Below are positions 6,446 through 63,389 of a DNA stretch of 64,000 nt, piece by piece (position 1 is the first letter of the stretch; each line of letters opens with the position of its first letter). The DNA is taken from contig CAMPDV010002024.1 in assembly GCA_946699065.1 (NCBI GenBank), forward strand, positions 1-64,000. The letters are read 5' to 3'. The notes beneath the pieces were generated by a model. The model had not been told where the DNA came from. It searched no databases and saw only the letters and a list, made by a program, of their open reading frames with translations. The position numbers and the translations under genes were made by a program. This DNA comes from Loxodes magnus (Eukaryota > Ciliophora > Karyorelictea > Loxodida > Loxodidae).

Positions 6446-9203
6446 ATGCTTAAAATCTTAACAATAACGATTTTGTTTTGCTTCAGAGTTAGCTTATCAG
6501 AATCATAATTCTTTGATATTTTAGTTCCAAACACTCCGACTTTTATTTCTCCTTCTAAAACTAACAGTTATGACTACAATCCTCAAAATTAAATTTAGTT
6601 TAGTATTACTTGCTGACTGAAATTTAGTTCATCTAACTAGAATGAAAAATGAGGCATTTTTGTTTAATTTTGAGACAACAGTTAAAACTTTATAGAACTA
6701 GGCATCAGTCAAAATCAAATTATTTCTAAAACGTTCTTTCACGCGAACCGTAAAAGTCACTAAGAGACAGAAAAAAATTATAATACAAATTTTATAAGCG
6801 ATATTTGGGTTTTTGTTGGGTTTTCAATTAATTCCCAAGGTCAATTTACATAAATTTGAACAAACTAGAAGATGCAAAATGAGATTGAAGTCAACGAAGA
6901 TAGCTTTAACGATATAATTACGTTTGAAGAAAAAATTAAAATAGAAATAGGAAGTAAAATTTAATCATGAAACTATGAAGGATACATGTATTCACTCAGG
7001 TATTTTAAAAACTAATATTTAATGTTGCAAGATTATTATTAGATTTTAAACGTAGCGTTCTAAGGATATGAAGAAAACTAAAATTAAGTAAAATGCACCA
7101 AATACTGTTCAAAATGCTACGGAATCAATAAGGATAACTGTTTATAGTGTTTCGAAGGATGAGAATTCTTGAACGATATGTGCTTCTGCTATATGAAAAT
7201 TTCATAAGAAAACAATATATGCATATAATAATGTCCAAATAAACAACACGACTATGAAAATATTGGAATTTGCATACTTTGCAATAGATTAATAGAATAA
7301 TGCGAAGCATGTGGTTAATTAGAAAAAAAATGTCTTTAATGTTAGACTCCATTTCTCCTATTTCAAAACGAATGCTTAAGTTAGTGTCCTAATGATACTT
7401 ATTTCATACAGAACTAAACATGTCAAGAGTGCAAATCTCAAATTTCAAATTGCGAATCCTGCTCTCTAAATGGGGCAGAATGTCTTTAATGTTTTGAATA
7501 TTTTTTCTTTCATGACTTTCATTGCATTGATTTTGATTATTAAAATTTTACAAGTTATAATTCTACTGGAAATGGATAAAAAGTTGCAGATTAGTTTTTT
7601 TATGTCGTTTCTAGATTTTAGTAACAAGTTTCAGTTATTACTAGTATTGGTATGTCTTATTCTTAGTTGGTAGGTCTTGCATCGACTAATATTTTAATAA
7701 TGGGAACTTCTTCGTCTACTAATTATTTATAAGCTTTTTGAAATGTTGCATTTATTACGTAAATGATTATGTTGAATGCTTATATTAATGTTCCTCGACC
7801 TGATAATTTGAATAACTACTACTTTCAGACTTTTTAGATAAACATTCCTTTTGGTCTCAATATTAACTTTTTCGTCATAAACTGAAGAGTCATGTTTATT
7901 GATAAGATAATTTGATTAAAACTTAATTATCATTGCTATGCTTTTTTAGCCAATTCTTTGTCCGCTCTTTTTATGTTATTCATATCTTTATGTTTTTTCA
8001 TTTTTGTTTTCAGCTTAAATTACTTTTTCAAAAATGTGAAATTAATTTAGAAGCTAAGGAAAGTTTTTAATTTTAGGATTGTTATCAATTTCTATTTCAG
8101 TTCTTGCTTAAACTTAAACTTCGCAATTTTCATGCAAATCTATTATTTTAGTTTGAAAGATTTCATTAATGCTTTTAACTCTTTTTTAGCTTTAATTTTT
8201 ATGGTAATTATTTATACAGGCTATTTAAGTGATAGTTATTTTTCTCTCTTGGAGAGGCACTTTTAAGGTTTATAAAAATAAGATTTAAACCTAAAATTAG
8301 AACGTAATCTCTAGTTAACTCTTTCACTAAGAAAGATGATACTAAGTCTACTTTCAAAATTTCCAGACTGATCAAATAGCAATTTACTGCCCTTTGTTTC
8401 TATTTAGTCGTTTTGTTTTGGGTTTAATTCTGATCTTCTTTATAAGCTATCCAAAAATATATATTTTTATAATGACTGGACTATGCTTTTCCTAGATTTT
8501 TATTTTACTAAAGTTTAAACCTTTTGAAGATCCTAAGCGTAATTACTTCGAATGCATTATAGAAGTATTTTTGATTTTCATTTATTCATCTAACTTTTAC
8601 TTCTCTGATCTTGAGTAAGGAAGGGAGTTGGGAACTATATATGACGAAGATTCTTAGTTCTTAGGAGCTTTTGTGATGTATTTCTCAAGTAGCTTTATTT
8701 TTGCGCTAACATTAGGAATGTTTATTATAAATATTAAGAACTCCATTAAAGGGTGTAGGCAAAGAAAAAAAGTTAGTACTATGTAGTAGCTTACCATTGA
8801 TAATACTACACTTAATTAGACCCAAATCTAGTTACAAAGAGAGTAAATTAGCAATAGGCTTTTTTCTGATCAAATTTAGAATTAAATAAAATAAGCTTAG
8901 CCAGTCTTTAACTCTTAGTTGTTCTAACTTACATCAGATAGATTTTAATAAAAGATTGCATCAGAGAAAAAATAAAATCAGAGCTTCCAACAAGATGAAA
9001 CTATTCTTCCACTTGAAATCTTTTCTCAGGAAAGAAATTAAATGCTACAACATAAAATGACAGAGATCGGAATTAATAACTACATAAAAAGTAAAAAGGA
9101 ACTTGGAAAAGCTTAAAATTAAAGAAAAGAAAGAGAAAAAATTAAAAAAAAGGAACAGAAAAGGAGTTCAATTATGATAGAAAAGTTAACTGAAAAGTTA
9201 TGA
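6446..9203 (+). CDS. Cys-rich multi-pass membrane protein with signal peptide (surface/receptor-like)
   Basis: The start ATG is followed by a clear signal peptide (about 18 residues, hydrophobic). Residues about 20-210 resemble a laminin-G-like beta-sandwich. Residues about 215-365 are C-X2-C-rich repeats of the furin/growth-factor-receptor type common in ciliate surface proteins. After about 7,600 come several hydrophobic helices and finally a long Gln/Lys-rich cytoplasmic tail to TGA at 9,201-9,203. Many Trp codons are TGA (for example K-W-G-I-F-V-Q-F-W). The coding frame shifts by one between about 8,290 and 8,350. A 28-base GT...AG stretch (about 8,304-8,331) would restore it if it is an intron and would give 909 residues; an indel is the alternative. 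Paralogues lie at 715-1,581 and 50,696-53,917. The ligand is unknown. Confidence 0.8.
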
Positions 9204-17290: not shown

Positions 17291-17969
17291 CTAGGTTTCT
17301 TATATTAAAAAGAGAAAATAAAGGAAACTAGAAATTTAATAAATATGAATGATTAGATATTTTTTTCATAAAGGCTGAAGAATAAAGATAAACTCTTCTT
17401 TACATCTCTATTTATAAAAATTAAAAAACATATAGCTATATTTTAGAATTTATATAAGAGTGTTTTATTTCTTTACTTCCTCCACCTAATTTTGGTTCTT
17501 TTCACTCTCATTTTAATAAGATCTAGCCATATCTAATTTCTGCATGAATACAATTTTTTTATTTCTTCATGCAATATAAAATATTATCGTTTTTAATCCT
17601 AAAAGTTTCATCAACTTAGATCTCTGAATCAGTTAAATTATGCTTACTATCAGATTAGCTTATTTACCTTTTAACATTCATAATATTTGGCTTAATTTTC
17701 AACTTCTAGATTTTTCTTAAATCTAAATCTAATTAAAGGAAGCATTTCTTTAAGATAGATGAAGAATTTATATGAAATTAATTCTCAATTTTGTTCATTA
17801 AGTATCTATTAAAGGCCTTAGCTGTAGTTGTTTTTAAATATCTAGTTCGATATTATAAAATGCAGACAATTGCTATTCATCATTTAAATATTGATATACG
17901 TTTTTCATATATTTCTAAATAAAATACCAATAATGATTAAGGTAATTACTCTCTTTTCAAATAAAAAAG

Positions 17970-18870
17970 TTAAATCTAAAGGTTAAAAAGCTTTGTTAAA
18001 GCCTTAGTAGTCAGCTATCTGACCTATTCTATCAGCTTGTCTCCATTAATTTGTCTTGAATTTCTACTAGGCTTATTTAGGCGGTATAGCACTTCATTAG
18101 CGCACCATCCATTAATATTCTGAATAGTTTTCATCTTGCATGTAGCGTTCCCAATTATTTCTCCAAGGATTAAGATTTGAATTAAAGAATTTTTTACTAG
18201 AAATTTTTCCGCTTCCGCTTTATGTTGGATATATCCTAAATAGTTTTTTAAAAATATCTTATTTATTCTTTCTTTAAATTTCGCTTAGTTAGTAGCAGTA
18301 TTTTCATTGGTGTTATTTATTGCACACGTAGCATTTTATTCTTCTTTTAAACTATTATTCCTGTAGCACTTATTTAATTTAAATTTACTACTTATTTTAA
18401 ATAAACGTTTACTGTTTATTTTAATTTTAGGCTTAATTCTCTATTTCCATAGGATCTGATTAATTCTGTTAAATCGAAAATGGCGTAACCTGAATTTATT
18501 ATTAAATTTAAAGAATTCTTTGTTCCAGTTTGCCTTCTATTTCTTATGATGATTAATATTGTTTCTCAAGTAAAGACGTTATTAGTTTTTCTAATTTTTC
18601 TACTTTATCAGTGAGGTATCTATTTTTAAACATAAACACTTTTAATGACTTAGATAATATTTCTATTTTAGTTTGTGTCGGAAGTTTTTTTAGTTCTGGA
18701 TTTCCAAGTGGTTAATGTTCGTCATATCAATCATATTTCTCACTTTCACTCATTGCAATTATTTCGCTTTTTTATTTTTTAGAGAATTTTCCCGTTTAAA
18801 TGTTTTGTTCAAAGTTCTGTTATTTCTTAGAAGCCATTTTATTAATATTTTTTTCAAATAATCTTAATGC
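17970..18870 (-). mobile_element. Zinc-knuckle (ORF1-only) element, copy 3, inserted in the LINE
   Basis: LINE sequence stops at about 18,880 and resumes at about 17,970, so this element interrupts it. It is roughly 90% identical over its length to the element at 35,572-36,425. It holds one ORF (18,094-18,837) followed by a conserved 3' region of about 120 bases that includes a small hairpin (GTCAG/CTGAC). Confidence 0.7.
18094..18837 (-). CDS. Coiled-coil/CCHC zinc-knuckle protein of an ORF1-only element
   Basis: The frame is open from ATG to TGA (18,094-18,096): 247 residues, length divisible by three, no break. The order is a basic M-A-S-K-K-Q-Q-N-F start, an acidic segment, a coiled coil of about 60 residues, Gln-rich linkers, the family motif P-M-E-I-E, then C-Y-V-C-N-K-Q-H-Q-W-K-Y-C, a CCHC knuckle with three rather than four residues before the His. 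It is likely a nucleic-acid-binding protein analogous to LINE ORF1 proteins. It is one of the best preserved members and may still be functional. It contains one L-P-T-Q-T motif. Confidence 0.65.
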
Positions 18871-20105: not shown

Positions 20106-20124
20106 TATAATAATTAATTTTAAC

Positions 20125-20440
20125 TTTAACTACAAGAGTTTTGGAGACCGGAAACTCCTTTCCAGTTAGACAATCCTTCACTCTCTTTTTAAGGAATAAT
20201 GTGGATATCCTTTTATGTTCCAGACACAGCTGCCCAGAGAACTCCATCGCTATGAGGAGCCAGATTTCAAGCCCTTACCAAAAGCGGATAATCTTGAAGA
20301 TATTGTTCACTTCAGAAAATGACTCTGACCAGGAACTTTCACAGCGACAGGAAAAGAACTTGTTCCTAGCTATAAAACCAGAAAATTTAATTAAGAAGAT
20401 CAATCTCAGCTCCTACCATATTTTTAATTATTTAAATGTT
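20125..20440 (-). repeat. Dispersed repeat B, copy 1
   Basis: This repeat of about 310 bases recurs at 23,598-23,905 on the opposite strand. In the sense direction it ends in a short hairpin, GGAAAGGAGTTTCC. It contains GGCTTGAAAT, weakly like a Pol III B box. No conserved coding frame was seen. It sits 20 bases from repeat A, in the same B-then-A order as the other locus. Confidence 0.55.
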
Positions 20441-22330: not shown

Positions 22331-23597
22331 TGCTATTTTTCTTATAAAATCTTCAATTTCATATTATTTGCTTGCAATTCCATTTACATTGACATGTCCA
22401 ATCGTAATCTGATTCATTATTTATATTTTAGTTATAATGGCCTAAATTAATTTTATTAATAACTTCTTTTCACCCAAGATTCACAAATTTAAAATTTCCT
22501 TCTTTCATCTACTAAATTCAACATGAACGTATTTTTTTATGTTCTTTATGTTCGTCAAAAAATTATATTATAATGTAGATATATCCTATATATCTTCAAT
22601 AGTCTCTAATCAAAGTTAATTTTAACTATTTGACTGTTATTCTATCCTTTTTCGAGTTTTAACCAAGTATTATGTATCATTTGAGACTACCGCTTAGAAA
22701 TAAGTTCTTCTATATAAGTTAAATAATATAAGTCTTGTAACTATTGTAAATTACCATTTAATTTTTTATAATAGGCAAATTTTTCTTTTTTATCGCTGCA
22801 ATATTACTTTGTGAACGGTAAACAAGGATTTGGACAATATCTCTTAAGTTCATTTATGGTATCTTCTTTCTATACATTTTTTACATTTTTTAGCTCATGA
22901 TTTTTGGATGGGAATTATATCCTCATTGATTTATTTAAAAGATTTCTATAATTAAAGTTAATTTTTGCAATAATTAAAGCTGTGAATTTAAAAGTATAAA
23001 TCTAAACCTAATAAACTACATTGCTCATATAATTTAAATAATCAAATCTTTACTATATTTTAATTTATTTATCATATCTACTAAAATATACTTATACTTA
23101 GCTTAGTTAGCACTGTCTTTATATTTTTTCAAGCTGCTAATAAGTTTATAATGTTAAAGTTGCTTAATTTAATATTCTAATTCTAAGTTTTATTTTACCT
23201 CCTCTTTGTTTAAAAATTACCTAGATAATTCGCTTAAAAAGCATTTGTAATTATTTTTAGTTTATTTATTTCCCTAAATAAAAGGAAATAAATATTATAT
23301 TTAATTCCTTAATACTGAATAAGAAATAGCTTAATTAAACTTAGAGGTACTTTATTTTTTAAATCCTAGCAAAGTAATTAAATCTCCTTTTTACTTATTG
23401 AAGTTGACGAATTTAATAGGAATATAAATTTACACTTTAGAGTAAATAGTAAACTTTAGATAATGTAAATTCCTTTGATAAATATAATCAAATATTTTAA
23501 AACATATCTACTATTATTAAAAGTTTTCATTATGTAGCTTGAGTAAATATTATACTCATAATTTATAATATAAAAAGGGTATATCATATTAATAAAA

Positions 23598-23905
23598 ATA
23601 ATTGAAAAAATGATGGGAGCTGAGAATGGCCTTCGTGACTAAACTTTCTGGTTTTATGGCTAGGAACAAGTTCCTTTTCCTGTCGCTGAGAAAGTCCCTG
23701 GTCAGAGTCATTTTCTGAAGGGAACGCTGTCTTTGAGATTATCCGCTCTTGGTAGGGGCTTGAAGCCTGGATGCTCATAGCGATAGAGCTCCCTAGCAGC
23801 TGTGCCTGAATCACAACAGGATATCTCCATTATTCCATAAAAAGAGAGCGTCGGATCGTGCAATCGGAAAGGAGTTTCCGGTCCAAAAACTTTTTTAGTT
23901 GAAAT
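23598..23905 (+). repeat. Dispersed repeat B, copy 2
   Basis: It matches repeat B copy 1 (20,125-20,440) in opposite orientation over about 300 bases with moderate divergence. It contains GGCTTGAAGCC (about 23,758), close to a Pol III B box, a terminal hairpin GGAAA-GGAG-TTTCC (about 23,866-23,880), and then a run of six T (23,891-23,896). The T run is not kept in copy 1, so Pol III transcription is only a possibility. Confidence 0.55.
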
Positions 23906-23929
23906 TAATTAATCATATTAATAAAAAAT

Positions 23930-28129: not shown

Positions 28130-28575
28130 AACTATTTTATTATATAATATAAAATGAATGTTGGCCGCTTCAGAAAATTAGTAGGTAATCTGGTGCAGTG
28201 TATACTGCATTGCGAGAATCTCGCATTAGATGCCACCACGGAGAAGGGTGCATAAGCTCCGTTGAGACATACCTAACTTACCCCGAGAGTTCTCCCCAGC
28301 AGCATGAAAGTTTTACTGACGGGCCTTCTAATTACCGACTTAATAACTAATTCTTATTTGGACCTTATTCAAGAAGACTGAAGCATTTGACTCAATATTT
28401 AAGAATAAATTTTAATAAGAAGATTCCCCATTTGGAGAAGTTGACATGACTCGGCGGACTTCTAGAATTTTAACAAGAAACATGAGAGCATTTTTCTTAA
28501 TATTAAATATTAATATTGAAAGAGCTGCTCGCCAATGAGGTGCTACGCGCTCTATAATAATTTTTATTTATTATT
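28130..28575 (+). repeat. Structured dispersed repeat A, copy 2
   Basis: This is a sense-strand copy. It begins near TTTATTATATAATATAAAA, carries the TGCAGT/ACTGCA hairpin (28,194-28,209) and the TGCGAG/CTCGCA hairpin (28,211-28,225), and ends in GCGCTCTATAATAATTTTT with a TTA-rich tail. It is highly similar to copy 3 (41,385-41,815), including the flanking AT start, so both probably arose by retroposition or transposition. The nature of the element is unknown. Confidence 0.65.
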
Positions 28576-28579
28576 ATTT

Positions 28580-29470
28580 ATTTATATAAATTCTAAGAAA
28601 TAATTAACCTTATTCAATCTACTACTGTTATCATATATTATTTTGATTATTTACTTTTACTGTTAAGCTTTTTTTTTGAAATCCAAACATAAAAAGTATA
28701 AAAATTAGTTTATTAATCTAGATAATCTTAATTAAAAAAATTAGCTAAGATTTAATCACTTAAATTACATATAAAGTTATAAATAAAAATCAAAAATTTA
28801 ATAATGAAGTATAGGATTAGATTAAATATTGGCTATTCTATTTAAAATGTTTCACTTATAAACTAGTAAAATTTAATAATTAAAATAGCTAGATATAATA
28901 AATATGTTATATGCCATTTGCTTTTTCTATGGTAACTTAGTTTATATAAGTTGAAATTTTTATTTATTTAGTTGATGTTTCTTAGTTTGAGAAACTTAAA
29001 AATTATAAAAATTCTGTTAATCAAAAAAAGGGATAGTCAGCAGTTTATTTGATTGTAAGCACGAATCTTATTTGATGACTCATCATTCCATTTAAAACCT
29101 AGATGCATCATTAACAATTAATTTATTCTTCTTTCAAAATAAAGCATTTAAATTTTATTTTATTAAGGTCTTTGGTAGAACATTAAATATTTACTATTAT
29201 TTATTTAATTAATAAACGTAAATCATTTTAATTTTAATATCCTATATTTAAAATAGTTATCTAACTTTATATGCTATTTAGTTGGAAAATAGACTGTATT
29301 TTATAAAGAAATACTAATTAATTATTAATGAAGCTTTATAGTGCAAACCTTTCTCTCCTACTGTTGCTAAATTTTTTAAAAACTTTGCTATCCAAGCTTT
29401 ATTAACTCATATTTCTCATTTGCTTTTCAAAATTTTTTCTATAAAGCAATAAATTTTAAAGAATCAGATT
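28580..29470. other. A+T-rich stretch without recognised genes
   Basis: Nothing is recognised. It probably contains the left flank and perhaps the 5' untranslated part of the LINE. Confidence 0.4.
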
Positions 29471-29603: not shown

Positions 29604-32600
29604 ATGAAATAAGATTATGCTAAATTTCTTTTTACATTAATAAAAGCGAGTCAAATCAAAAATGAGAAGCTAGAATATGCAATCTTACTTATTAAACTAT
29701 GAAAAATATTAAGATAAAAGAAAATAAGAAATTAATAATTTATTATTATCTTAGATAGTTAGAATTCAAAAGATATACCTTCAAATCCTAATTAAAATTC
29801 AAATAAAGATATCCTTTTATGGTAGTCAAAAATAACATAAACTTAAGATTCATTTTTGAATAATACTAATTAACAATTCTATTAAATTTCAAATAACGAA
29901 ATTAATCAGAAATAAAATAATACTACTAATCCTGATAATTCAAATAATCATTATTTACCTGATCTTCAGAGCAAACAAGCTTAAAATTAAACTGCTGATT
30001 TAAGAAATGTAATATAAAATTAAATAATTAATTAGTCTAATGAGAATTTATTTACCTTAGAAATAAAAGAACTTAAACATAATATATAAAGACTTATAGA
30101 TAAGAACCAATAATTAAATGAAATGCTAATTAATATAAAAGCAAAATATGAACGAGATATTGAAACATTGATAAGTAACTAAGAAATATCCAAAATATAT
30201 TATAAAACTTATATAAATAAAATTTATTAGAAATATAAGCAATTATAGAACAATTTTTAGTCAATCAAATCTGATATATAGCAATATCACAAAAAAATGC
30301 TATCAAAATAACTAGTTCATAAAATTACTTAAACAAACTTCTCCACTTATTACAGTAACTAAATAGTTTAAACAGATGAAATAATTAGTATATTTCAAGA
30401 AATTTAGATATAATAGAAAAACTATGAGAATTAAGTCAATTCAAAATATGAAATATAATCTAATTAAGAGATTCAAATTGAAGCCAATGCTAATTAAAGC
30501 TTTACTTAAGCTTAAATGATAGGAGCAAATAATTCACTATGCCAAAACTTTAATAAAATTAAAAATTTTACTTAAATTGAAATAGATAACTTTCTAAATA
30601 AAACTTAGCAAGGATATCAATAGACTATATTAGAATAGAACTAATATTTACTTCAACAAATTACCTAATAAAAAATAATAAACGAAATTTAACTCCAAGA
30701 GTTATATTCTTAATATTAAAAATTATAAAACTAAAATAAGTAATTTATAGATTAAGAATAGAAAGCTTAAATGGAAATTTTAACTTTTAAAATCGAATTA
30801 GATAAGTAAAGATAATAAAAATATGAAATAAATATAGTTTTTCAAAATTAAATTCTATTAAAAAATAAGGAAATTCAAATGTATAAAGAATTATTTTAGA
30901 ATTAAATCTAACATACAAAAGAATTTAGTAATTAATAGTAATTTTAGAAGAAGTAATTTGTAGATGCATAAACTTAAACATTATATGGAAATATTTAAAC
31001 AAAGGATAGTATTATCTAAACAGATAATATAAATAAATAATAAACAGCTTTTTTGTGTCAAAAATTTACTCAAACAAATATAATCAAGCAAGACAAGTTA
31101 ATGTAAACTTAAAATAATTAATAGGAAGCATAAACTAATACTATTATAACATAATATAATAACTAATACTGTCAAATAAAATTGCCAGATGAAGATTTTG
31201 TTTTACTATAGCATTAATATCACTAACTCAACTTAAAATTCATTTAAAGTACCCAAAATATGTAGACACTTGAGATAAAAATAGAAGAGTTTTAAAAACT
31301 TAATTAAAATTTGAAAAAAGATATATTTAATTATTCTACTAAAAGATGAAAAAAAGATTAATAAAACTAAACAGATTCGATCGATGCTATTTATCAGAAT
31401 TAAACCTTATCTTCCAATATTAATCTTAATATTCTTAAAAGGAAACATGAAGAAGAAGATAAAACAATTCCGCCAGCAAAACGTATGAGTAAACATAATA
31501 ATAAAAAAGAGTGCGATTAAATAATATGTTATTTCAATCTGACTAGTCTATAACTTTAAAAGTTTATTAAATCCGAAACTTGAAGACGTCCATAGTACGA
31601 AATGCACAATATATAAGGTAGATATGTCACACTTACTTAAGATTTAGAATAAGGTACATGTGATAGTGTGAAAAGTAAAATTGATATAGATAGAAAGCTA
31701 CTTAAAAAATATACGACGTAAGTAATATATATTTTGATACAATATTTTCATTAACATCCTGAGTATGGAAAAAGATTAATACATATTTAGATTAACCAAT
31801 AAGGATAGAAAAGCATTTGCATTTACGAAAGTGGTCTATCTACAGGCTCGGAAAAAATTAGAAAGGACTAATAAATTTAAAAAATAAAGATGGGACATAT
31901 AAATATTAATGGAATAGCGAGCAAGTGCTTGAATATTGAAGAATTTATCAGAGATAACAGTATAGATATTTTATCAATAAACGAAACCTGATAAAAAGAT
32001 GACTTTCCTCCAATATTGATAAATGGATTTAAAACATATTTTAAGAACTCAGGAAAAGGAGGAGGTGTATGCTTAATTGTAGGAGAAGAATTGAATAGTA
32101 CAGAAATACATATATAAGTTGAAAAAGAAATAAATAGATTCATAACAATTAAACTGGATAATATTTTAATCACGTCTTGTTACATGCCTGATAATGGAAA
32201 AAGTTAAGATGTTAAAGATTTAGCTTATGAACAACTAAATACATTGCTGAATTTATATAATGATAATCCACATATACTAATGGGAGATTTCAATGCTCTT
32301 TTATAAGGCTTCGGTGATAATCCTGAAAATGCTTATGATAATAACATTAGACTATAAGAATTCTTACTATAAAACGATCTTGAGATAGTGAATGATAGCA
32401 ACATTAATACATGTATTCACAAAGGAACAGGAAAAACGTATTGTAATGATTATATCATTATAAACAACCATTTGAACGTTAATTAGTTTGCAAATTTCAC
32501 TGCTCATAATAATAGTTTATTTTCTGATCATATTCCAATCACTGTCGACTTTATCAATAATTCTATAGTATATTGGGAAAAGATAACTCAGAGAAAATAT

Positions 32601-35279
32601 AAAATAAATAGGTTATAAGATGCAATAGATAGATAAAAATATTAAGAATCTTTCCTACAAACTTATCTAGAATTCTTTTAAATAGATTAAGATAATCTTG
32701 AAGATTAATATGAATGCATCAAAAGTAATATTTAAGACAATGCTGATCAAACATTAGGTTCGTTTATTCCAGATTCAAATTATAACAAACTTCCTCGAGC
32801 TCTCACAAAGAAATATATAGAGGCAAAAAGAACTAACTCAGAATATAAGGAAGCTCACGTAAGATTTGGAAGAATAAACTAGCAAGTAACTAATCTTCAT
32901 GAGGAAGCAAAACGACTTTGGAAAGACTTCAAGTATAATCTATGAAAATTTAAAAAAAACAAAGCAAAAAAGAAATTTCTACTTCTTAATGGAGATTCTA
33001 GGGAAATTTTTTCACAGGCTAAGAAAATTCTAAATCCTTTGAAGAGAAATACTATGAACTTTGATTAAGAAATCAAAAATAAATTCATTGAATCATGGGA
33101 AAATTGTGTTTTTAACAAGCATTATAATCTAACTCAAGAATAGATAAATCTTAGTAATTAAAAAATAGATAAAATATACGATAATATTTAAGAAATTAAA
33201 GATTATCCACTCTCGTATTTGTAAGGATTTGATCTTTTTACCATAAAAGAAATATAAGAAATTATAAAAGAAATTCCGAATGGAAAAGCAGCTGGTCCAG
33301 ATGGAATAAAAGGCGAACTTCTGAAATATGGTGGATAATATTTATTAATAATTCTTCATTCTTTTCTGAATAATATGCTAAGACTTGGAAGAATCCCTTA
33401 GGAATTAAATATATCGGTGATAATTCCAATATTTAAAAAAGGAAATAAAGATGATTGGAAAAACTGACTACCTATTTCTCTTATTAATACTATTCTAAAA
33501 CTATATGATAAAGCTTTAACAAAAAGAATATACAATCTGATTTATTAGAGAAATTTGATTCACCCTTCATAAATGGGATTTATGAAAAACAGATAAACAA
33601 CTTAATAAATTTGAATAATATAACAAATAATTGATAACTATCGGAAATGTGCTAAAGGTAAGACTAAATTGATAGCAACACTGATAGACGTTGAAAAAAT
33701 GTTTGACTCAATAGAAAGAAGACTCTTGTTTGATTAACTTAAGAGAGTTAAACTACCACTTGGAATAATAATAGCATTAGAATCGTTTTATAAAAACCTA
33801 AATTCTTCATTTATCATAGATGGTAAGAGCACCAGAACTTTATAGTTCAACAATGGAGTTATGTAAGGAAGTTCTCATGGACCAGTTTTAGCATTATTGT
33901 ATTATGACATAGTAATTAGATATCTGGAAAGTAAAAGTAACTAATTGGGATTTAAATGCCAGGATTCAAGTATTAGCTTCGCTTGTAGAGGATGGGCAGA
34001 TGATCTTATTCTTCTTTCCAAATCTGCAAAGTAGATGTAGAATTTAATAAATGAAGCAAATAAAGTTTTTGCATGAACACATTTAAAGATTAATGTTACC
34101 AAATCCGAATGCATCTAATTTCTAAAGAAGAATCAGAAATAATAAATTTTAAATTTATAATTAGGAAATTAGCCAATTGCTTAAAAAGAGCAAGTAACAT
34201 ATTTAGGAGTTATTCTACATTAGAAGAAGAACTTAAATCCCCATTGCAAAGAAACTGCATTCAAGTATATAGCTGCAATGAAGAAAGCTGTTTTTTAACT
34301 GATGAGATATAAGAATGTAACTCCTTGACATTTTAAAACTTTATGTAGACTTTTTACATTACCTAAAGCAGAATATGGAGGAGACTTAGTACCATGAAGT
34401 ATTCAAAAAGGAGTAACTGGAGTTCTGAACAGAATAGAATCAAGCATGAGATTAATTTCAAGAAAAGCTTTTTAAGTAGCAACTTCAACATTTAATGAAT
34501 CATGTTATATAGACCTGAATTGATTACCCTTTAAGCACATTATGGCTATAAAATTCTTCAGATTCTACCATAAAATTAAATAAGAAAGTACTGATTTTCC
34601 AAGATCAACAATAGGCTCTCTTTTCATTAATATATGGAAAAAAGGATTTCAATACTACGATTAAGTGTAGCAATTATCAGACCTTTATAATATCGATCTG
34701 CAGAATTAATAGAATAATACCAATCTTAAAACTTTTACTAAACATATAAGAGAAAAAATACAACAATATTTCTACAAAGTAGCTACTAAAAAATTTATGA
34801 GGATGAAAACAGCTAGAGTATATACTGAATAATTTGGTAATCTTTAACAATTTCCACAAATTACTTATACTAAATTAAACAAATAGTATAGACGAGAAAT
34901 TATCAGTATATATAAACTTAGAACCTAAACTTATAATTTCCGTAAGGATCTTTAAGATCGTCATTACCCCATTGATAATCCCTATTGTATGTGTGGAGAG
35001 TATGAAACTTTCGTGCATATCTTTAAATGTGTGTACTATTCTAATATAATGAATTGATTATCGGAAAATATCGGAAATTATGACTTAAGGCGCCTTATAC
35101 TATACGATCAAGAATATCTAAACTCATTTTCAAGGTCTAAATTGGAGTATTTAGACTTATAGATCAAAATATTTCATAAGAAGCTAATGACAAGGAGACT
35201 TGAGATTCTAGAAATGGAGAAAGCAAAAAAGGAAGAAGCTAAAGATGAATAGAAAGAAGAACTAATTAAAGAAAAATGA
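29604..35279 (+). CDS. LINE polyprotein: coiled-coil ORF1-like region fused to endonuclease and reverse transcriptase
   Basis: 1,891 codons run in one frame, ending at the first TGA of TGATGA. Residues about 1-760 are helical and Gln-rich, with seven Q-T-containing motifs (K-I-T-Q-T, K-F-T-Q-T and others) and a basic P-P-A-K-R. The endonuclease follows from about 763 (G-H-I-N-I-N-G; N-E-T-W; G-D-F-N-A near 895; S-D-H near 977). The reverse transcriptase follows (G-K-A-A-G-P-D-G, N-W-L-P-I-S-L-I-N, L-I-D-V-E-K-M-F-D-S-I, G-V-M-Q-G-S-S-H-G-P, W-A-D-D near 1464). A C-M-C-G...H...C cluster lies near 1796. All key catalytic residues are visible. Trp is written both TGA and TGG. The true start may lie upstream, because the frame stays protein-like to about 29,500. 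The fused arrangement is supported by the matching pre-endonuclease region in the decayed copy at 23,060-22,420. Confidence 0.85.
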
Positions 35280-35323
35280 TGAGATGTAAACAAGATTAAA
35301 AAACTATTTAAAAACATTTACTA

Positions 35324-35365
35324 ACGTCTATAATTGAAAGAAGCAATTCTTGCAATTAAAGACGT
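35324..35365 (+). other. LINE 3' hairpin, copy 2
   Basis: It is identical to the hairpin at 627-668: a 13-position stem with one mismatch and a 16-base loop, 42 bases after the TGATGA stop and followed by an A run. It is the probable recognition site for reverse transcription. Confidence 0.75.
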
Positions 35366-35571
35366 CAAAAAACTCTTTTAGTTTAAATTTAATTTAATTT
35401 AATAATTTATTATTGCTAATAAGTTAGAAGATTAGTGGTTGTATGTTTCTTTAATAATCAGCATGACATCTTTATAGTTCAATTTGAACTTTCTTAATAG
35501 TGAATCTAGATAAGTTTTAATGGATTAAGAGAATTTAAAAATAAGAAAATTTTTTATTTAAAAAAGTTAAA

Positions 35572-36425
35572 AAGCTTTGTTAAAGCCTTAGTAGTCAGCT
35601 ATCTGACCTATTCTATCAGCTTGTCTCCATTAGTTTGTAATGAATTCCTACTAGGCTTAGTTAAGCGGTATAGCACTTCATTAGTGCACCATCCTTTAAT
35701 ATTTTGAATAGTTCTTATCTTGCATGTAGCGTTTCTAATTATTTCTCCAAGGATTAAGATTTGAATTAAAGAATTTGTTACTATAAATTTTTCCGCTTTA
35801 TGTTGGATATATCCTAAATAGTTTTTTAAAAATATCTTATTAATTCTTTCTTTAAATTTCGCTTAGTTAGTAGCAGTATTTTCATTGATGCTATTTATTG
35901 CACACGTAGCATTTTATTCTTCTTTTAAACTATTATTCATTTAACACTTATTTAATTTAAATTTGCTAGTTATTTTAAATTAATGTTTACTATTTATTTT
36001 AATTTGAGGCTTCATTTTCTATTTCCATAGGATCTGATTAATTCTGTTAAAACTAAAATGGCGTTACTTGAATTTATTATTAAATTTAAAGAATTCTTTG
36101 TTCCAGTTTTTTTTACTATTTCTTATGATGATTAATATTGCTTCTCAAGCAAAGACGTTATTAATTTTTCTAATTTTTCTACTTGATCAGCGAGGTATTG
36201 AACATAAACTCTTTTAATGACTTAGATAATATTTCTATTTTAGTTTGTGTCAGAAATTTTTTAATTCTGGATTTCCAAGTAGTTAATGTTCGTCATATCA
36301 ATCATATTTCTCACTTTCACTCATTGTAATTATTTAGCTTTTTTATTTTTTAGAGAATTTTCCTTTTTAAGTGTTTTGTTCAAAGTTCTGTTATTTCTTA
36401 GAAGTCATTTTATTATATATATAAT
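35572..36425 (-). mobile_element. Zinc-knuckle (ORF1-only) element, copy 5
   Basis: It is a close relative of copy 3 (17,970-18,870) over its whole length, with the same ATG, family motifs and conserved 3' region. The ORF (36,408 to 35,678) has a net length change, so the frame is broken about once or twice. It lies just beyond the 3' end of the intact LINE, on the opposite strand. Similarity to copy 3 begins and ends at the same points in both, which defines the element as about 870 bases. Confidence 0.7.
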
Positions 36426-37929: not shown

Positions 37930-38825
37930 TTTATTATAATATTAAAAAATGGCACCTAAGAAATAAGAATTCTCCAACAAAGTCTAATAATATTTAGCAG
38001 GATGCAGTCAATAATTTCTCCTTCTTTTGATAGAGAATTAAGAATTAGCAAAGTCTATTAAAGATCTTTATCAACGAACTAATGAAATATTAAACTCTAT
38101 AGAAATTCTAAAATCTGAAAATTCAACACTACGATAGGAGTTAGCTCTAAACCCGTACTTGCAACAAACTTAAGGTAGAATTTTACAGACAGAACAAATA
38201 GTAAGAGAAATTTAAAACTCGAAAATATGTAAGCCAGAACAATCCTTAATATAAATAACCCAATGGAAATAGAATAACAACCTGTAACAAAACACATTCA
38301 ACATAAGAAAATAATGATATGCTGATATTGCAAGCTTTCAGGACATAAAGCAAGAAATTGCTACCAATTTTAATAAAAATAAAAGAGATTAATATAAAAT
38401 AAATGGTAAGATATATTTAGAATCTACTGCACAAGTGAAGGCTTACTCTATCGGAAAAAAACACGCCAATTAAACAAAGAAGCTCCAAATATACAACAGG
38501 CAATTAACGAATTCAATAAGAAATGAATGGGAATCGACCTATCGGAAACTCTCAGAAAAAAAAATTAAAAATCCTCAGGACTTATGATAAACAAGATCCA
38601 AGCAAATATGAAGTTTCTTTTATTTAACATTAAACTTTTAATTTATAATTAACCAAATAAAGGCGAAATCACTTAAATTAGCAATAATAATTATTATAAA
38701 GTTCATAGTAGATGGATAAATATAATTAATATTAAACACTGCTTATATGATCATGATATTGACTTTATTATATCGTGGTTATTCAAATAATAGCGCCACG
38801 TTAAATTATTATTATTATTATGTTT
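37930..38825 (+). mobile_element. Zinc-knuckle (ORF1-only) element, copy 6
   Basis: It starts M-A-P-K-K-Q-E-F like copy 3, continues as a coiled coil, then N-P-M-E-I-E-Q-Q-P-V and a perfect knuckle, C-W-Y-C-K-L-S-G-H-K-A-R-N-C (C-X2-C-X4-H-X4-C). The Trp is TGA. The frame is broken about once. The 3' part carries a hairpin with arms CGTGG/CCACG (about 38,776-38,802) and ends in ATTATTATTATTATT (about 38,806-38,820). A decayed LINE reverse transcriptase begins shortly after, so it could instead be the ORF1 of that LINE. Confidence 0.6.
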
Positions 38826-41230: not shown

Positions 41231-41384
41231 TTTAAGTCTAAATATTACTAAAAATTGAAACTCTTATAGTTTATTATTATAATTATTATATATTATATTA
41301 GACTTTATTTAAAATCTATGTTGATAATGAAATAAATAATTCAAACTAAATTTATATAAATAATAAATAATAATAAATAAAAAT

Positions 41385-41815
41385 TATTATAGAGCGCGTA
41401 GCATCTCATTGGCGAGCAGCTCTTTCAATATTAATATTTAATATTAAGAAAAATGCTCTCATGTTTCTTGTTAAAATTCTAGAAGTCCAATGAATCATGT
41501 CAGCTTCTCCAAATGAGGAGTCTTCTTATTAAAAATTATTCTTTAATATTGAGTCAAATGCTTCAGTCTTCTTGAATAAGATCAAAATAAGAATTAGTTA
41601 TTAAGTTGGTAATTAGAAAACTCGTCAGTCAAACTTTCATACTGCTAGAGATAACCCTCGGGATAAGTTAGACATGTCTCAACGGAGCTTATCCACTCTT
41701 CCCCGTGGTGGCATTTAGTGTGAGATTATTCGCAATGCAGTATACACTGCACCAGATTACCTACTAATTTATCTGAAGCGGCCAACATCCATTTTATATT
41801 ATATAATAAAGAATT
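41385..41815 (-). repeat. Structured dispersed repeat A, copy 3
   Basis: It is an inverted copy of the repeat at 28,130-28,575, similar over the full 400+ bases including the AT-rich start and the TTA-rich end. The first hairpin (TGCAGT/ACTGCA) is kept exactly; the second is imperfect. There is no repeat B close by. Confidence 0.65.
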
Positions 41816-50695: not shown

Positions 50696-53600
50696 TCATT
50701 TTCTGGCTACAAAGTTAAGTCCTCTATCTTTCAAATATTGTATGAATTGATCTAAGTCTTTTTTACTTTCATTATATAAGCTACTTTCTTCATTCTTTTA
50801 ATGGATGGTAAAAAATCTATCAGTAGTCTATGACTAATTTTATTTTTAAATTACTGATACGTTTTAACTCTATTCATTGTATACTTATATCTGGCTTTTT
50901 CTTAGTGCTATTCGTTCTTTGCATTTAAGATATAATCTATACGTTGAAAATATTATTATTAAAACTAACCCAAACAGAGTAAAGATGGTAGATATCATTA
51001 TAATTGCATTTCCAAGTCTTCTATCTTATTCAGGATAAGTGTTATTTACTTCATTTTCCTCATCCAGTTACATAAAGCTAAAATTGCTTAAATAGATAAA
51101 AAGTAGGAGTGTTTCTAAGCTAACCTCTGAAATATTAGCTAGCTTATTTGCAAAAGGTCTAACTATTAGAATGTAAATAATTCATACAAAACAGGTTAAG
51201 GAGATTAGTATTATCTAAACTTAAGGAAAATCCATAAACATAATAAGCACTAAACCTAAAAAATACCTTCTACAAAGGAAAAGTGGAAAGTAAAACACTC
51301 CATAATCATTTTTCATTTCTTTCAGAAGGATACGATATTTGAATTCGAACCTTTACCAAACGTTCTTGTCTTCTTCTTAATTCTACTGACTCACTCTTTT
51401 CTTTCACTTGTAAATTATTTAAAAGATCCTAAATATAATAAAAGCAGAAATTATCTATATAAAAAATGTTACCAAGCAAAATATAGAAAATAGAGAGTTT
51501 ACTGATTCTTCTGCGTTATTGAAAGAAAGGTGATAGATATTGAGAGAGAAACTCAAGAAAATCTACAAGCATTAAGCTTGAAATAAAGATAAAACAAGTG
51601 TGTAATGTGTTTACTTAAGTAATTTTTCTGCAATTTAGGCAAATTTCTAAAATCTTATGAGAAATACAACCAAAAGATCTAGTAGCATCATTGTTAGCAT
51701 GATTAGTAAAGAGTAAATTGCATTTACTAAGAAGGCATAACTAGAGTAGCCTAGAAGTTTTAAGTTCCATTTATCAATTTTCATCACTTTCCAAGATTCT
51801 ATAAGTTAAGCGTTTAGGCCAAAAGGAAGGAAATTATCAAAATTCTAAAAGTAATAAGCGTTCAAGTTATCGGGTCTCTTAACATTAATAAAGGAATTAA
51901 ACATGATCATTTATTACTTACAGACGATACTAAAGAACATCCATAGAGAAATTGGGTTGGACGCAATTATAGAAGCAGCGATAGAAAAAGTTGCAATAGT
52001 AGTCTACTACTAAAAAGCTATATTTGAGGATAGATCTATAAAATTTTTTTCTGTTTATGAAATATTAAAGTTATCTATATCCTCATAAGACTCTATCTCT
52101 TCCTTGACGACTTAGTCTTGCCTTTCTTTCACTTTACATTGATTGTTCTCAAGTTAATAACCAATATTACATTCAGAACAATTAGAGATTCAGCACTTTT
52201 AACAATTTTCAACCTAACACTCACATGATAAACAAAATTCACATATATTGCATTCTTCTATTTTTATCTAATATTTTGTTTTATTTTACTTAATTGTATC
52301 CTCAGTACAATTAATGCATTTATTATAATCGCATTAATTGCAACTATAAGTACTATTACTAATATTAAGGCATTATTAAGTTTTCTCATCCCAAAAAAAT
52401 TAGTCCTAACATTGTAAGCAAATGCTGTCATTTGAGCATAAGATACAATTTTATATCAACAACTCGCAAGAAAGACATGCTCCATTTATTCTTATTAACC
52501 CCTCAGAGCATTTAAGTATGCATTAGTTATCTTATAATTCGTAGTTTTCTTAGCAAGAATAACATTCACTTCCAGTATTTTAATCACAAGTTTTGCAATT
52601 CTGGATTCTATCTGAGCAATTTTAGCAGTTTTAATATTCTTCAAGATATTAAAATTCTGTGCAATTTCTTATGCATTAAGCATTAGACAGAATAAAATCT
52701 GACTGACAAGCGTCACAGTAGGTAGAATTTGTACATTCTAAGTAAGAAGGAATGGTTTTATTGCAAGGTATGCATTATTGATCGGGAAAAAATCCATTTG
52801 TACATTTGAGGCAAGTACTTCCTGCTTCATCACATTCCAGGCAATTGGAAACGGAAAAGTTGCAAGATAAGCATTATCCATGCTAGAAATACTCCAAATT
52901 TTAAGCACACTTAAAGCATTTATTGTTGTGTCAGATGGCCTCATCTTCACATTTAGAGTAATTACTTCCAGTAAGATCACATTCTATGCAATAATCAATA
53001 GATTTATTGCAAAATTAACATGATCCATCTTTGTTGTATTCGTTACTTTAACATGATAAGCATTAGTTCTGTTTTAATATTTTAGGAAATTAGCATTCAT
53101 AACATTAATTTCGTATTAGATCACATGAAAGGCAATCTGTAAATGTATTATTACATCACTCACATGAAGAATCATTTGTGACTGATTAATATTACAAGCA
53201 CTCAGTATAATTAGTGTTACTAGTCTCTTATTTATTACAATTTGCCGTACAATTCTAGCAAACTCTGTTTGAATTAGATTACTCTTGTGAAGGACAAGAA
53301 TCAACAGCTGATCCATTAGAAATATATTTAGAATCTGAACAATTGAAACAACTATTTAATGTATTTCCACATTGACTGCAGAGAGATTTATTATACGAGT
53401 CAATTTCAGAAAAAAAGCAAGATATGCATTAAACTAAAAAATAATTACCAAAGTAAAGTGATTCGAATTATATAGGAGTTAATTGTTAGTTATCAGTATA
53501 AAATCTAACATTAAATAAATACCCTCACATATAATATTCGGAAGATGAACTCCCTAATTATATTTATGCTTTAATTTTATATAAATTATATAAAGGAAAT

Positions 53601-53917
53601 CTCCAACATATCAATGAGTTCCAATCAAAGCTTGGTAAAGCTCCACACATTCTAAAATTATAATCAGGATAGCTTTGAAGACTTTTAGCAGTAAAAGTTG
53701 CTCTGGAAAAAATTCATGAGTTACAGCTTTGACCTAAATAGAGCAAGCAAAATTTTTTATAAATAGCAATGGAGTTTACAAAAAAATATTTGACACAGAA
53801 CAGATCTAAGTGAGATGGTTAAGGATTGTAACTATCCACATAATAAAATGGTCGAGAATCCAAATTCAATAAAAATAGATAGCTGGATCTGTCTGAAATT
53901 CCAATGAAAGCTAACAT
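50696..53917 (-). CDS. Cys-rich multi-pass membrane protein (surface/receptor-like)
   Basis: The frame is uninterrupted from ATG (53,917) to TGA (50,696-50,698): 1,073 residues. Residues about 1-160 resemble the laminin-G-like N-terminal domain of the paralogue at 6,446. Residues about 162-595 are dense C-X2-C repeats (over 50 Cys) of the furin/growth-factor-receptor type. Residues about 625-990 hold several membrane helices, including F-Y-F-P-L-F-L-C-R-R-Y-F-L-G-L and I-V-R-P-F-A-N-K, aligned with the same places in the paralogue. A Gln-rich tail ends N-F-V-A-R-K. TGA encodes Trp inside the Cys repeats (C-E-W-C). The N-terminus lacks an obvious signal peptide, so the true start may be elsewhere. 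A pure AAT tract lies 20 bases upstream of this ATG. Confidence 0.85.
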
Positions 53918-56479: not shown

Positions 56480-56560
56480 CGACACCAGCAGGATTTTAAC
56501 CTGCGCGGGAGAACCCAACAGATTTCAAGTCTGTCGCCTTAACCACTCGGCCATAGTGTC
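56480..56560 (-). tRNA. tRNA-Ser, anticodon UGA (reads UCA)
   Basis: A full cloverleaf is visible. The acceptor stem GACACTA pairs with TGGTGTC. The anticodon stem ACAGA/TCTGT has the loop CTTGAAA, so the anticodon is TGA. There is a long variable arm, a T stem GCAGG/CCTGC with loop TTAAAAT, and discriminator G, as expected for serine. There is no intron. Five T residues directly follow on the minus strand (56,475-56,479), a Pol III terminator. This is an ordinary serine tRNA and not a suppressor of the UGA codon. Confidence 0.95.
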
Positions 56561-61812: not shown

Positions 61813-63389
61813 TCAGACTCTTTAAATATTTTAATAAGTAGTAACATATTTACCTAATTATAGATCTTTAAACTACTTCTTTGTATATGAGATTATATTT
61901 ATTATAAATACTATTAGTAATATAGATATTATTATTATGTTTATCAGTCACTTACTTTCAATACTTTTATAACTCAATTTTTCTAAATCAATCCTCATTA
62001 TTGAAACTCTTGGTTATTCCTCAGCAAAAACATATCCATAGTTATTTCTTATTTTAATCTCCGTTAAAGCTTCAACATCTTTAAAAATTTAACTTTATTC
62101 TCATTATTCTTTGTTTCTTTTATATATTCTTCTTGAATATTCTTGCGTAGAATATTTTTTTAAACCTCCAATTATGACAAAAGGCTCTAAAGAAACTATA
62201 GGAGAAGCAACAGCTACAGGAAGATTCAAATTATACTTACTCCATCTATCATTCTATATGTTATACTTTAATATTTCTTTTAAGTATTATTTTTTCTACT
62301 TTTAGCCTCCAAAAGAATAAATATTTTATTCATCTTTATCTACTACTAAAGTTTAATCTGCTATTTAGAATGGAAATTAAAAGCAGTTTTATCATTTACT
62401 TTAGTTTCCTATCTTTAACTTTTCTACTGATTATAAAGCTTCATAATTATTAGTACATCCTCCAACCACATAAAGATATTTTTAAGCAGCTGCTATTCCA
62501 AAATCACTTCTTCCTTCATTTAGATTATTTAGTTTTATATTATTGCCTTAAAAATCAAATTATCAAGTTTCTTTTATTGCTTTATTTTAACTTTAGTTAT
62601 ATCCTCCAATTAAATATAACTTATTTTAATATTCTATACTTTTACTAAGGTATGGAATTATAATTTAAACTTAGATTTATCTTAATTACTCTGTCTAAAT
62701 ATTAAATAAACTTAATTTTTAAATATCTTAATCAAAATAGTGAATATAGTTAGATGATATAAAGTGCTAGCTTAGTTTATCTTTACTAGTATTTTATTTT
62801 TCTTACTTAGTATTGTATTATAGTTTCTATCTTATTTGTTAGTTATAACTTTAAGTTAATTTAGATAGCTTTTGTATTAAAGCTGGTTATATAGTGGAAT
62901 ATAGTTAGACTGCTTATGTTATATTAGATTTTAGTTGGTTTTAGCTATTAGTAAATAGGGAATTAGGATGATTGTATAATATTTGAGTGTTATTAGTTGT
63001 AGATAAAAGTAGGTTAATGGTAGTGTATTGGATGATATTAGTATATGGTATTATGAGAGTATTAGTAATGTTTGATAATTTGGTTGTAATGGTTTTAGAT
63101 TTTTGCATAATTTAGCTTTTGGTTTCTTTTAATTTCTATCTAGCATCTTAAATCTTTTATATGTATTATTAGTTTTAAAATATCATTCTTATTAAATCAC
63201 TTTCTTAAGCTAAGTAAATCTAAAATGGAATCCTTTTTAACAAATAGGACATTACATTATGCCTTATAATCAGTACTGAGTATTCAAACACAAACCACAG
63301 TAAATATGTCCACAAGGTAAGACAGTTGGAAGAGCATTAGTTAAGTTGTAATCTTCTAAGCAGATTAAGCATTTTGGTAACGCTTACAT
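61813..63389 (-). CDS. RING-finger/kelch-repeat protein with C-terminal membrane helix (probable E3 ubiquitin ligase)
   Basis: ATG at 63,389 opens a C3HC4 RING: C-L-I-C-L-E-D-Y, V-L-P-C-G-H-I-Y-C-G-L-C and Q-C-P-I-C (residues about 7-48). A helical linker and a Thr/Asn/Pro-rich segment follow (about 63,110-62,650). Then come kelch blades (L-Y-L-I-G-G-Y, L-Y-V-V-G-G-C, I-Y-S-F-G-G-Q) at 62,620-62,150. A hydrophobic helix near the end (I-I-I-I-S-I-L-L-I-V-F-I-I-N-I-I) precedes TGA at 61,813-61,815. The total length is 2 modulo 3 and the frame changes once just after the RING, so one short intron or an indel lies near 63,150-63,250. RING supplies E2 binding and kelch probably substrate binding, at a membrane. 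Trp in the RING is TGA. Confidence 0.7.

What the first reader, a model, noticed from the sequence alone, without database searches (positions are those of the whole stretch)
6446..9203. All three standard stop codons are used as sense; TGA is both Trp and stop
Conserved positions decide the code. TAR stands at Gln in reverse transcriptase M-Q-G-S-S, and TGA stands at Trp in N-W-L-P-I-S-L-I-N (33,455-33,480), T-Q-Y-W of the RING, C-W-Y-C of zinc knuckles and many other places, side by side with TGG. All seven protein ends I could place are TGA. This matches the karyorelict code (table 27), known from Loxodes and relatives, and makes standard-code gene finding fail completely on this DNA.
Basis: partly seen in the sequence, partly recalled or inferred. 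Interest (0 to 1): 0.85.

Follow-up and report, generated by a model that had tools for sequence, protein, structure and literature searches.

The report
Known karyorelict ciliate genetic code
This DNA comes from a ciliate that reads all three usual stop codons as amino acids and still uses one of them, TGA, to end its proteins; the reading is right, but this code was already described for what appears to be the same organism.

Summary
The window is contig C2024 of a 705,730,643-bp assembly. That size fits the published Loxodes magnus macronuclear assembly (706 Mbp), whose authors state NCBI table 27: UAR = Gln, UGA = Trp or stop. I did not confirm the species by rRNA.

In the window TAR = Gln is clear (RT 100.7 bits; best of nine other residues 92.8). 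TGA = Trp is best of ten residues, narrowly (Arg 99.8). Cutting the RT at TGA drops it to 23.9 + 51.0 bits.

The decisive evidence lies outside the window. In two actins and an aminotransferase, 4 of 7 TGA codons fall on Trp of solved relatives, and both actins end HRKCF-TGA. TGA follows known C-termini in 47 of 48 readable actin-pattern hits, 9 of 10 histone H4-pattern hits and 16 of 17 EEVD-type HSP70 loci.

The machinery fits: tRNA-Trp(CCA) with a 4-bp anticodon stem, and eRF1 with Ala at human position 70. The gene at 6446-9203 has one inferred 22-nt intron.

The parts
6446..8234 (+). Gene A, exon 1: signal-like start, Cys-rich (growth-factor-receptor-like, by eye) repeats, first membrane part; 9 in-frame TGA, many TAR
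   Evidence: Translation; paralogue B, 26% over 440 aa, E 2e-28; no Pfam match
8235..8256 (+). Inferred 22-nt intron GT...AG of gene A
   Evidence: Frame change shown by the paralogue match; removal joins the frames. No RNA data.
8257..9203 (+). Gene A, exon 2, one sense TGA, ends with TGA at 9201-9203
   Evidence: Paralogue B, 31% over 166 aa, E 1e-16
50696..53602 (-). Gene B, paralogue of gene A (5' end not determined), 6 sense TGA, 5 TGG, stop TGA at 50698-50696
31803..35282 (+). LINE-like ORF2: endonuclease and reverse transcriptase, ends TGA TGA at 35277-35282 (start not determined)
   Evidence: Exo_endo_phos 36.9 bits and RVT_1 95.1 bits
33444..34217 (+). RT domain used for the code test: 13 TAA, 5 TAG, 3 TGA, 2 TGG
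   Evidence: RVT_1 100.7 bits under table 27; cut at TGA 23.9 + 51.0 bits; counts
33864..33866 (+). TAA at the Gln of V-M-Q-G-S-S
33465..33467 (+). TGA in N-W-L-P-I-S-L-I-N
   Evidence: Tyr in 8 of 8 other RT copies
63270..63272 (-). TGA near the second Cys pair of a RING finger (C-L-N-T-Q-Y-W-L)
38323..38325 (+). TGA in a CCHC-type knuckle C-W-Y-C-K-L-S-G-H
   Evidence: motif name from recall, not run against Pfam in its own stretch
61948..62727 (-). Kelch-repeat gene, 3' part, stop TGA at 61950-61948
   Evidence: Kelch_4 49.4 bits

Best explanation
The window is a piece of the Loxodes magnus (karyorelict ciliate) macronuclear genome, read with NCBI table 27. UAA and UAG are Gln. UGA is Trp inside coding sequence and the only regular stop at its end. 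Shown by sequence: the codon meanings, the TGA ends, tRNA-Trp(CCA) genes with a 4-bp anticodon stem, and an eRF1 with Ala at human position 70. Inferred from the literature: the short-stem tRNA-Trp(CCA) reads UGA as a near-cognate, the altered eRF1 leaves room for it, and UGA close to the poly(A) tail is taken by eRF1 instead, so the same codon has two meanings by position.
For: Assembly size 705,730,643 bp against the published 706 Mbp MAC assembly; the paper states table 27. TAR = Q best of 10 residues tested; TGA = W best of 10 residues tested; RT cut at TGA scores less. All 150 scored RT matches hold 3-9 in-frame TGA plus TAG and TAA. Two actins and one aminotransferase: 4 of 7 TGA on Trp of the solved relative, two of these invariant-looking actin sites, about 1e-6 by chance at an assumed 1.3% Trp. 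TGG in the same three genes: 9 of 11 on Trp. Ends: HRKCF followed by TGA in 47 of 48 readable hits; LYGFGG followed by TGA in 9 of 10; EEVD followed by TGA in 16 of 17 loci; eRF1 ends with TGA. tRNA-Trp(CCA) with a 4-bp stem. eRF1 residue 70 is Ala.
Against: The species name rests on assembly size and biology, not on rRNA. In the window alone the lead of Trp over Arg is 0.9 bit, and in zf-C3HC4 Trp is not best. Three of seven TGA in the conserved genes face T, G and S. In gene A only 1 of 10 TGA faces TGG in the paralogue; the three TGA of the window RT face Tyr, Phe and a gap in the other copies. One histone H4-pattern end is not TGA (against 73), and one actin-pattern hit has TAA, on a contig without any actin match. 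TGA depletion before stops could not be shown with four window genes: at about 1% TGA per codon, the TGA-free tails seen (50 codons or more) are expected often.
Confidence: 0.96

Rival explanations
1. Ordinary ciliate code (table 6): TAR = Gln, TGA only stop; the internal TGA mark decaying transposons and pseudogenes.
For: Much of the window is repeats and LINE pieces. The highest-scoring HSP70 hits (31 rows before the first with TGA) and the large actin and alpha-tubulin families hold no in-frame TGA.
Against: Two otherwise intact actins and an aminotransferase carry TGA on Trp positions; decay would scatter TGA. The RT loses score when cut at TGA. Non-transposon genes A and B hold 10 and 6 internal TGA. 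The tRNA and eRF1 changes point the same way.
Confidence: 0.02
2. Condylostoma code (table 28): same sense meanings, but TAA and TAG are also used as stops.
For: One H4-pattern end is TAA, TAG or TGG (letters not readable). One actin-pattern hit has TAA.
Against: TGA follows in 47 of 48, 9 of 10 and 16 of 17 conserved ends. The TAA hit lies on a contig with no actin match, and the reversed-pattern control gave 2 hits. The published L. magnus work names UGA the only stop.
Confidence: 0.02
3. TGA stands for another amino acid (Arg, Cys, selenocysteine) in these genes.
For: Arg is within 0.9 bit of Trp in the RT and better in zf-C3HC4.
Against: Trp in 4 of 7 TGA positions of conserved genes, none with Arg or Cys. 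Selenocysteine would need a SECIS per gene; not searched.
Confidence: 0.01

Closest known systems
Karyorelict nuclear code, NCBI table 27, in Loxodes magnus (PMC11441545: abstract, passages and sections 9 and 11 seen)
   Same: TAR = Gln; TGA = Trp or stop; short introns (paper: mean 19.3 bp; here one of 22 nt inferred); large, LINE-rich genome (paper ~2,700 RVT_1 copies; here 3,403 first-look candidates)
   Different: No difference found
Condylostoma magnum code, table 28 (PMC4967479: passages seen)
   Same: All three stops also sense, meaning set by nearness to the transcript end
   Different: There UAA and UAG also end proteins; here the ends tested are TGA apart from one unresolved and one probably unrelated hit
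Blastocrithidia code (PMC12153298: passages seen)
   Same: tRNA-Trp(CCA) with a 4-bp anticodon stem; eRF1 replaced at human Ser70
   Different: There UAR = Glu, UAA is the stop, and residue 70 is Gly; here UAR = Gln, UGA is the stop, and residue 70 is Ala

Membership tests
Karyorelict code (table 27) | UAA and UAG code for Gln | tested here: met
   RT score best with Gln of 10 residues tested; TAR on Gln in 8 of 18 (eRF1) and 3 of 9 (actin L082) aligned places, CAR 2 of 13
Karyorelict code (table 27) | UGA codes for Trp inside genes | tested here: met
   4 of 7 TGA on Trp in two actins and an aminotransferase; best of 10 residues in RT, narrowly
Karyorelict code (table 27) | UGA is the only regular stop | tested here: met
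   47 of 48, 9 of 10, 16 of 17 conserved ends; two exceptions, one unresolved, one on a contig without actin match
Karyorelict code (table 27) | Coding UGA depleted before the true stop | tested here: inconclusive
   Four window genes have 50-287 TGA-free codons before the stop, but chance allows this
Karyorelict code (table 27) | Organism is a karyorelict (Loxodes) | tested here: inconclusive
   Assembly size equals the published one after rounding; rRNA not examined (only the window was scanned with Rfam: one tRNA)
Condylostoma code (table 28) | UAA and UAG also serve as stops | tested here: not met
   As above; at most 1-2 exceptions in the ends tested
Ciliate code (table 6) | UGA only stop | tested here: not met
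Short-stem tRNA-Trp mechanism | tRNA-Trp(CCA) with 4-bp anticodon stem and no tRNA-Trp(UCA) | tested here: met
   ARAGORN on L013 and L040; 133 pattern hits, of which the 100 listed are CCA; UCA pattern 7 hits against 9 in the control, letters not readable
Short-stem tRNA-Trp mechanism | This tRNA translates UGA in vivo | not testable with these tools
   Needs a reporter or tRNA-seq and ribosome profiling

The most novel reading that the evidence does not exclude
Loxodes carries both halves of the Blastocrithidia solution: a 4-bp-stem tRNA-Trp(CCA) and an eRF1 changed at human Ser70 (here Ala, with T58R and S60Q in the TAS-NIKS stretch). The two would work together to make UGA readable as Trp while leaving UGA as the stop near the poly(A) tail, so ciliates and trypanosomatids reached the same pair of changes separately.
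Probability: 0.55. Interest if true: 0.4.

Novelty: already known. Interest (0 to 1): 0.2.

Why it matters
A genome in which no codon is reserved for stop is a strong case of context-dependent meaning of a codon, and it defeats standard gene finding. The case is already in print for this lineage. What this check adds is conserved-gene evidence read straight from the assembly, and an eRF1 residue that can be tested together with the known short-stem tRNA.

Tried and rejected
Unsupervised coding models gave patchy frames and were used only to choose regions to scan. Pfam scans of regions totalling about 42,000 aa of the roughly 128,000 aa of six frames found few domains; two searches found none. 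The first RT comparison used six loci on the wrong strand and was redone. PDB search with the LINE protein gave no match; with HSP70 at E 1e-200 none (threshold too strict, not repeated). In one search the printed context row for the LINE is out of frame; its stop was taken from the two-copy comparison and checked. Comparison of the two LINE copies (98.0% DNA identity) showed TGA kept in place but no TGG/TGA exchange and no sign of selection, so it does not bear on Trp. Residues tested for TGA and for TAR were 10 each, not 20. tRNA-Gln(UUA/CUA) was not searched.

Papers: PMC11441545 abstract, passages, sections 9 and 11; PMC13092985, PMC4967479, PMC12005148 and PMC12153298 passages only; others in listings only. 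Seah et al. 2022 and Swart et al. 2023 were not seen; they are cited by the papers read. For eRF1 of Loxodes the search gave 4 papers, of which two were opened in passages and two not opened, so I make no claim that residue 70 is unreported.

Full report
What was checked. The finding says that all three standard stops are sense in this window and that TGA is both Trp and stop. Standard-code frames are nearly absent: 5 of 100 aa or more in 64 kb.

Where the window comes from. The own-genome search names the window contig C2024 of an assembly of 705,730,643 bp in 7,843 contigs. The published Loxodes magnus macronuclear assembly is 706 Mbp, rich in retrotransposons, with about 2,700 RVT_1 copies; here the first look gave 3,403 candidates, of which 150 were scored. 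That paper states that Loxodes uses table 27, with UGA the only stop and also Trp. I take the window to be from that assembly; rRNA was not examined.

Meaning of the codons in the window. For the reverse transcriptase at 33,444-34,217, reading TAR as Gln gives 100.7 bits, against 92.8 for Ser and less for the eight other residues tested. Reading TGA as Trp gives 100.7, against 99.8 for Arg, 98.4 for Tyr and less for the seven other residues tested. If TGA is taken as a stop, the domain breaks into pieces scoring 23.9 and 51.0 bits, with nothing for the two outer pieces. For the RING at about 63.3 kb, Trp leads in zf-RING_2 (38.0, next 36.8), ties with Gln in zf-RING_UBOX (42.9), and is not best in zf-C3HC4 (28.6; Arg 30.2). 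So the window alone proves TAR = Gln and readthrough of TGA, and favours Trp only mildly.

Meaning of TGA in conserved genes of the same assembly. Actin L082 has four internal TGA; two fall on Trp of the solved actin (D-W-E-E-M-E-K-I-W and A-W-M-G-G-S-I), two on Thr and Gly. Actin L083 has one internal TGA, on Trp. An aminotransferase next to the best eRF1_1 match (L009) has T-G-W-K-I-G-W written TGG then TGA, both on Trp of the solved kynurenine transaminase, and a second TGA facing Ser. Together 4 of 7 TGA are on Trp; TGG in these three genes is on Trp in 9 of 11. At an assumed background of 1.3% Trp, 4 of 7 has a chance of about 1e-6. Genome-wide, the actin motif around the first of these Trp codons is written with TGA in 2 places and TGG in 54, so sense TGA is rare in these genes.

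Stops. After the conserved actin end V-H-R-K-C-F, 48 of 55 pattern hits were readable: 47 have TGA and one TAA. The TAA hit lies on C11, which holds none of the 96 actin matches, and the control pattern gave 2 hits. Most of the 47 are near-identical repeated copies, so independent cases are few. After L-Y-G-F-G-G of histone H4, 9 of 10 hits have TGA; the tenth (C24:778889) is TAA, TAG or TGG and could not be read. After E-E-V-D of HSP70, 16 of 17 loci have TGA, from three gene types; the seventeenth (L046) has lost the end by a frameshift. The alpha-tubulins printed in full (3 of 20 loci) and eRF1 also end at TGA.

Machinery. A tRNA-Trp pattern with C or T at anticodon position 34 gave 133 hits (control 9); the 100 listed all have CCA, 99 of them one 31-mer in tandem arrays on C67 and C148. 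ARAGORN reads those tested (L013, L040) as tRNA-Trp(CCA) with a 4-bp anticodon stem, the top pair being A.C. The UCA version gave 7 hits against 9 in the control. Passages of two papers already report this 4-bp tRNA in Loxodes. eRF1 (L010) aligns to human eRF1 over 425 residues (532 bits). It reads R-A-Q-N-I-K-S for T-A-S-N-I-K-S and Ala for Ser70. In Blastocrithidia the Ser70Gly change is tied to UGA readthrough.

The named gene. Gene A (6446-9203) has no Pfam match. It is a Cys-rich membrane protein by eye, with paralogue B at 50,696-53,602 (-). The frame changes once; removing the GT-AG stretch 8235-8256 (22 nt) gives one reading of 911 codons and a TGA stop. The published mean intron is 19.3 bp.

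How it works. Shown: codon meanings, ends, tRNA form, eRF1 residues. Inferred: near-cognate reading by the short-stem tRNA-Trp, a weakened claim of eRF1 on UGA, and termination where UGA is close to the poly(A) tail, as proposed for Condylostoma and Parduczia (passages) and stated for Loxodes. The window offers no test of the last step: TGA-free tails of 50-287 codons in four genes are not beyond chance.

Verdict. Observation confirmed, interpretation supported, novelty none beyond details. The open points are the one unresolved H4-like end and the role of eRF1 residue 70.

Noticed in passing
6446-9203 and 50,696-53,602: Two paralogous Cys-rich membrane protein genes on one contig; a further fragment like gene A exon 2 (46% over 90 aa) lies at 817-1083.
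   Followed up: partly
1-693 and 34,698-35,390: Second copy of the LINE 3' end, 98.0% identical in DNA, keeping every TGA including the final TGA TGA.
   Followed up: partly
17,963-18,697 / 35,538-36,269; 28,162-28,593 / 41,348-41,791; 20,122-20,437 / 23,592-23,907: Other repeated stretches within the window, some inverted; not identified.
   Followed up: no
56,480-56,560 (-): A tRNA-Ser gene with anticodon TGA (ARAGORN, Rfam 63.5 bits).
   Followed up: no
own genome, C67:482-491 kb and C148:155-169 kb: tRNA-Trp(CCA) genes in long tandem arrays, spaced about 187 and 241 bp; HSP70 (C45, C86, C854) and actin and tubulin genes also in many near-identical copies.
   Followed up: no
own genome, C24:778889-778909 and C11:882275-882295: The only conserved-end hits not followed by TGA: an H4-like end (codon unread) and an actin-pattern hit with TAA on a contig without actin match.
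   Followed up: partly
L042-L044: HSP70 loci of another type (ends ...EEEADFK...) that lack EEVD; their ends are not fixed by a known C-terminus, so they were left out of the stop count.
   Followed up: no
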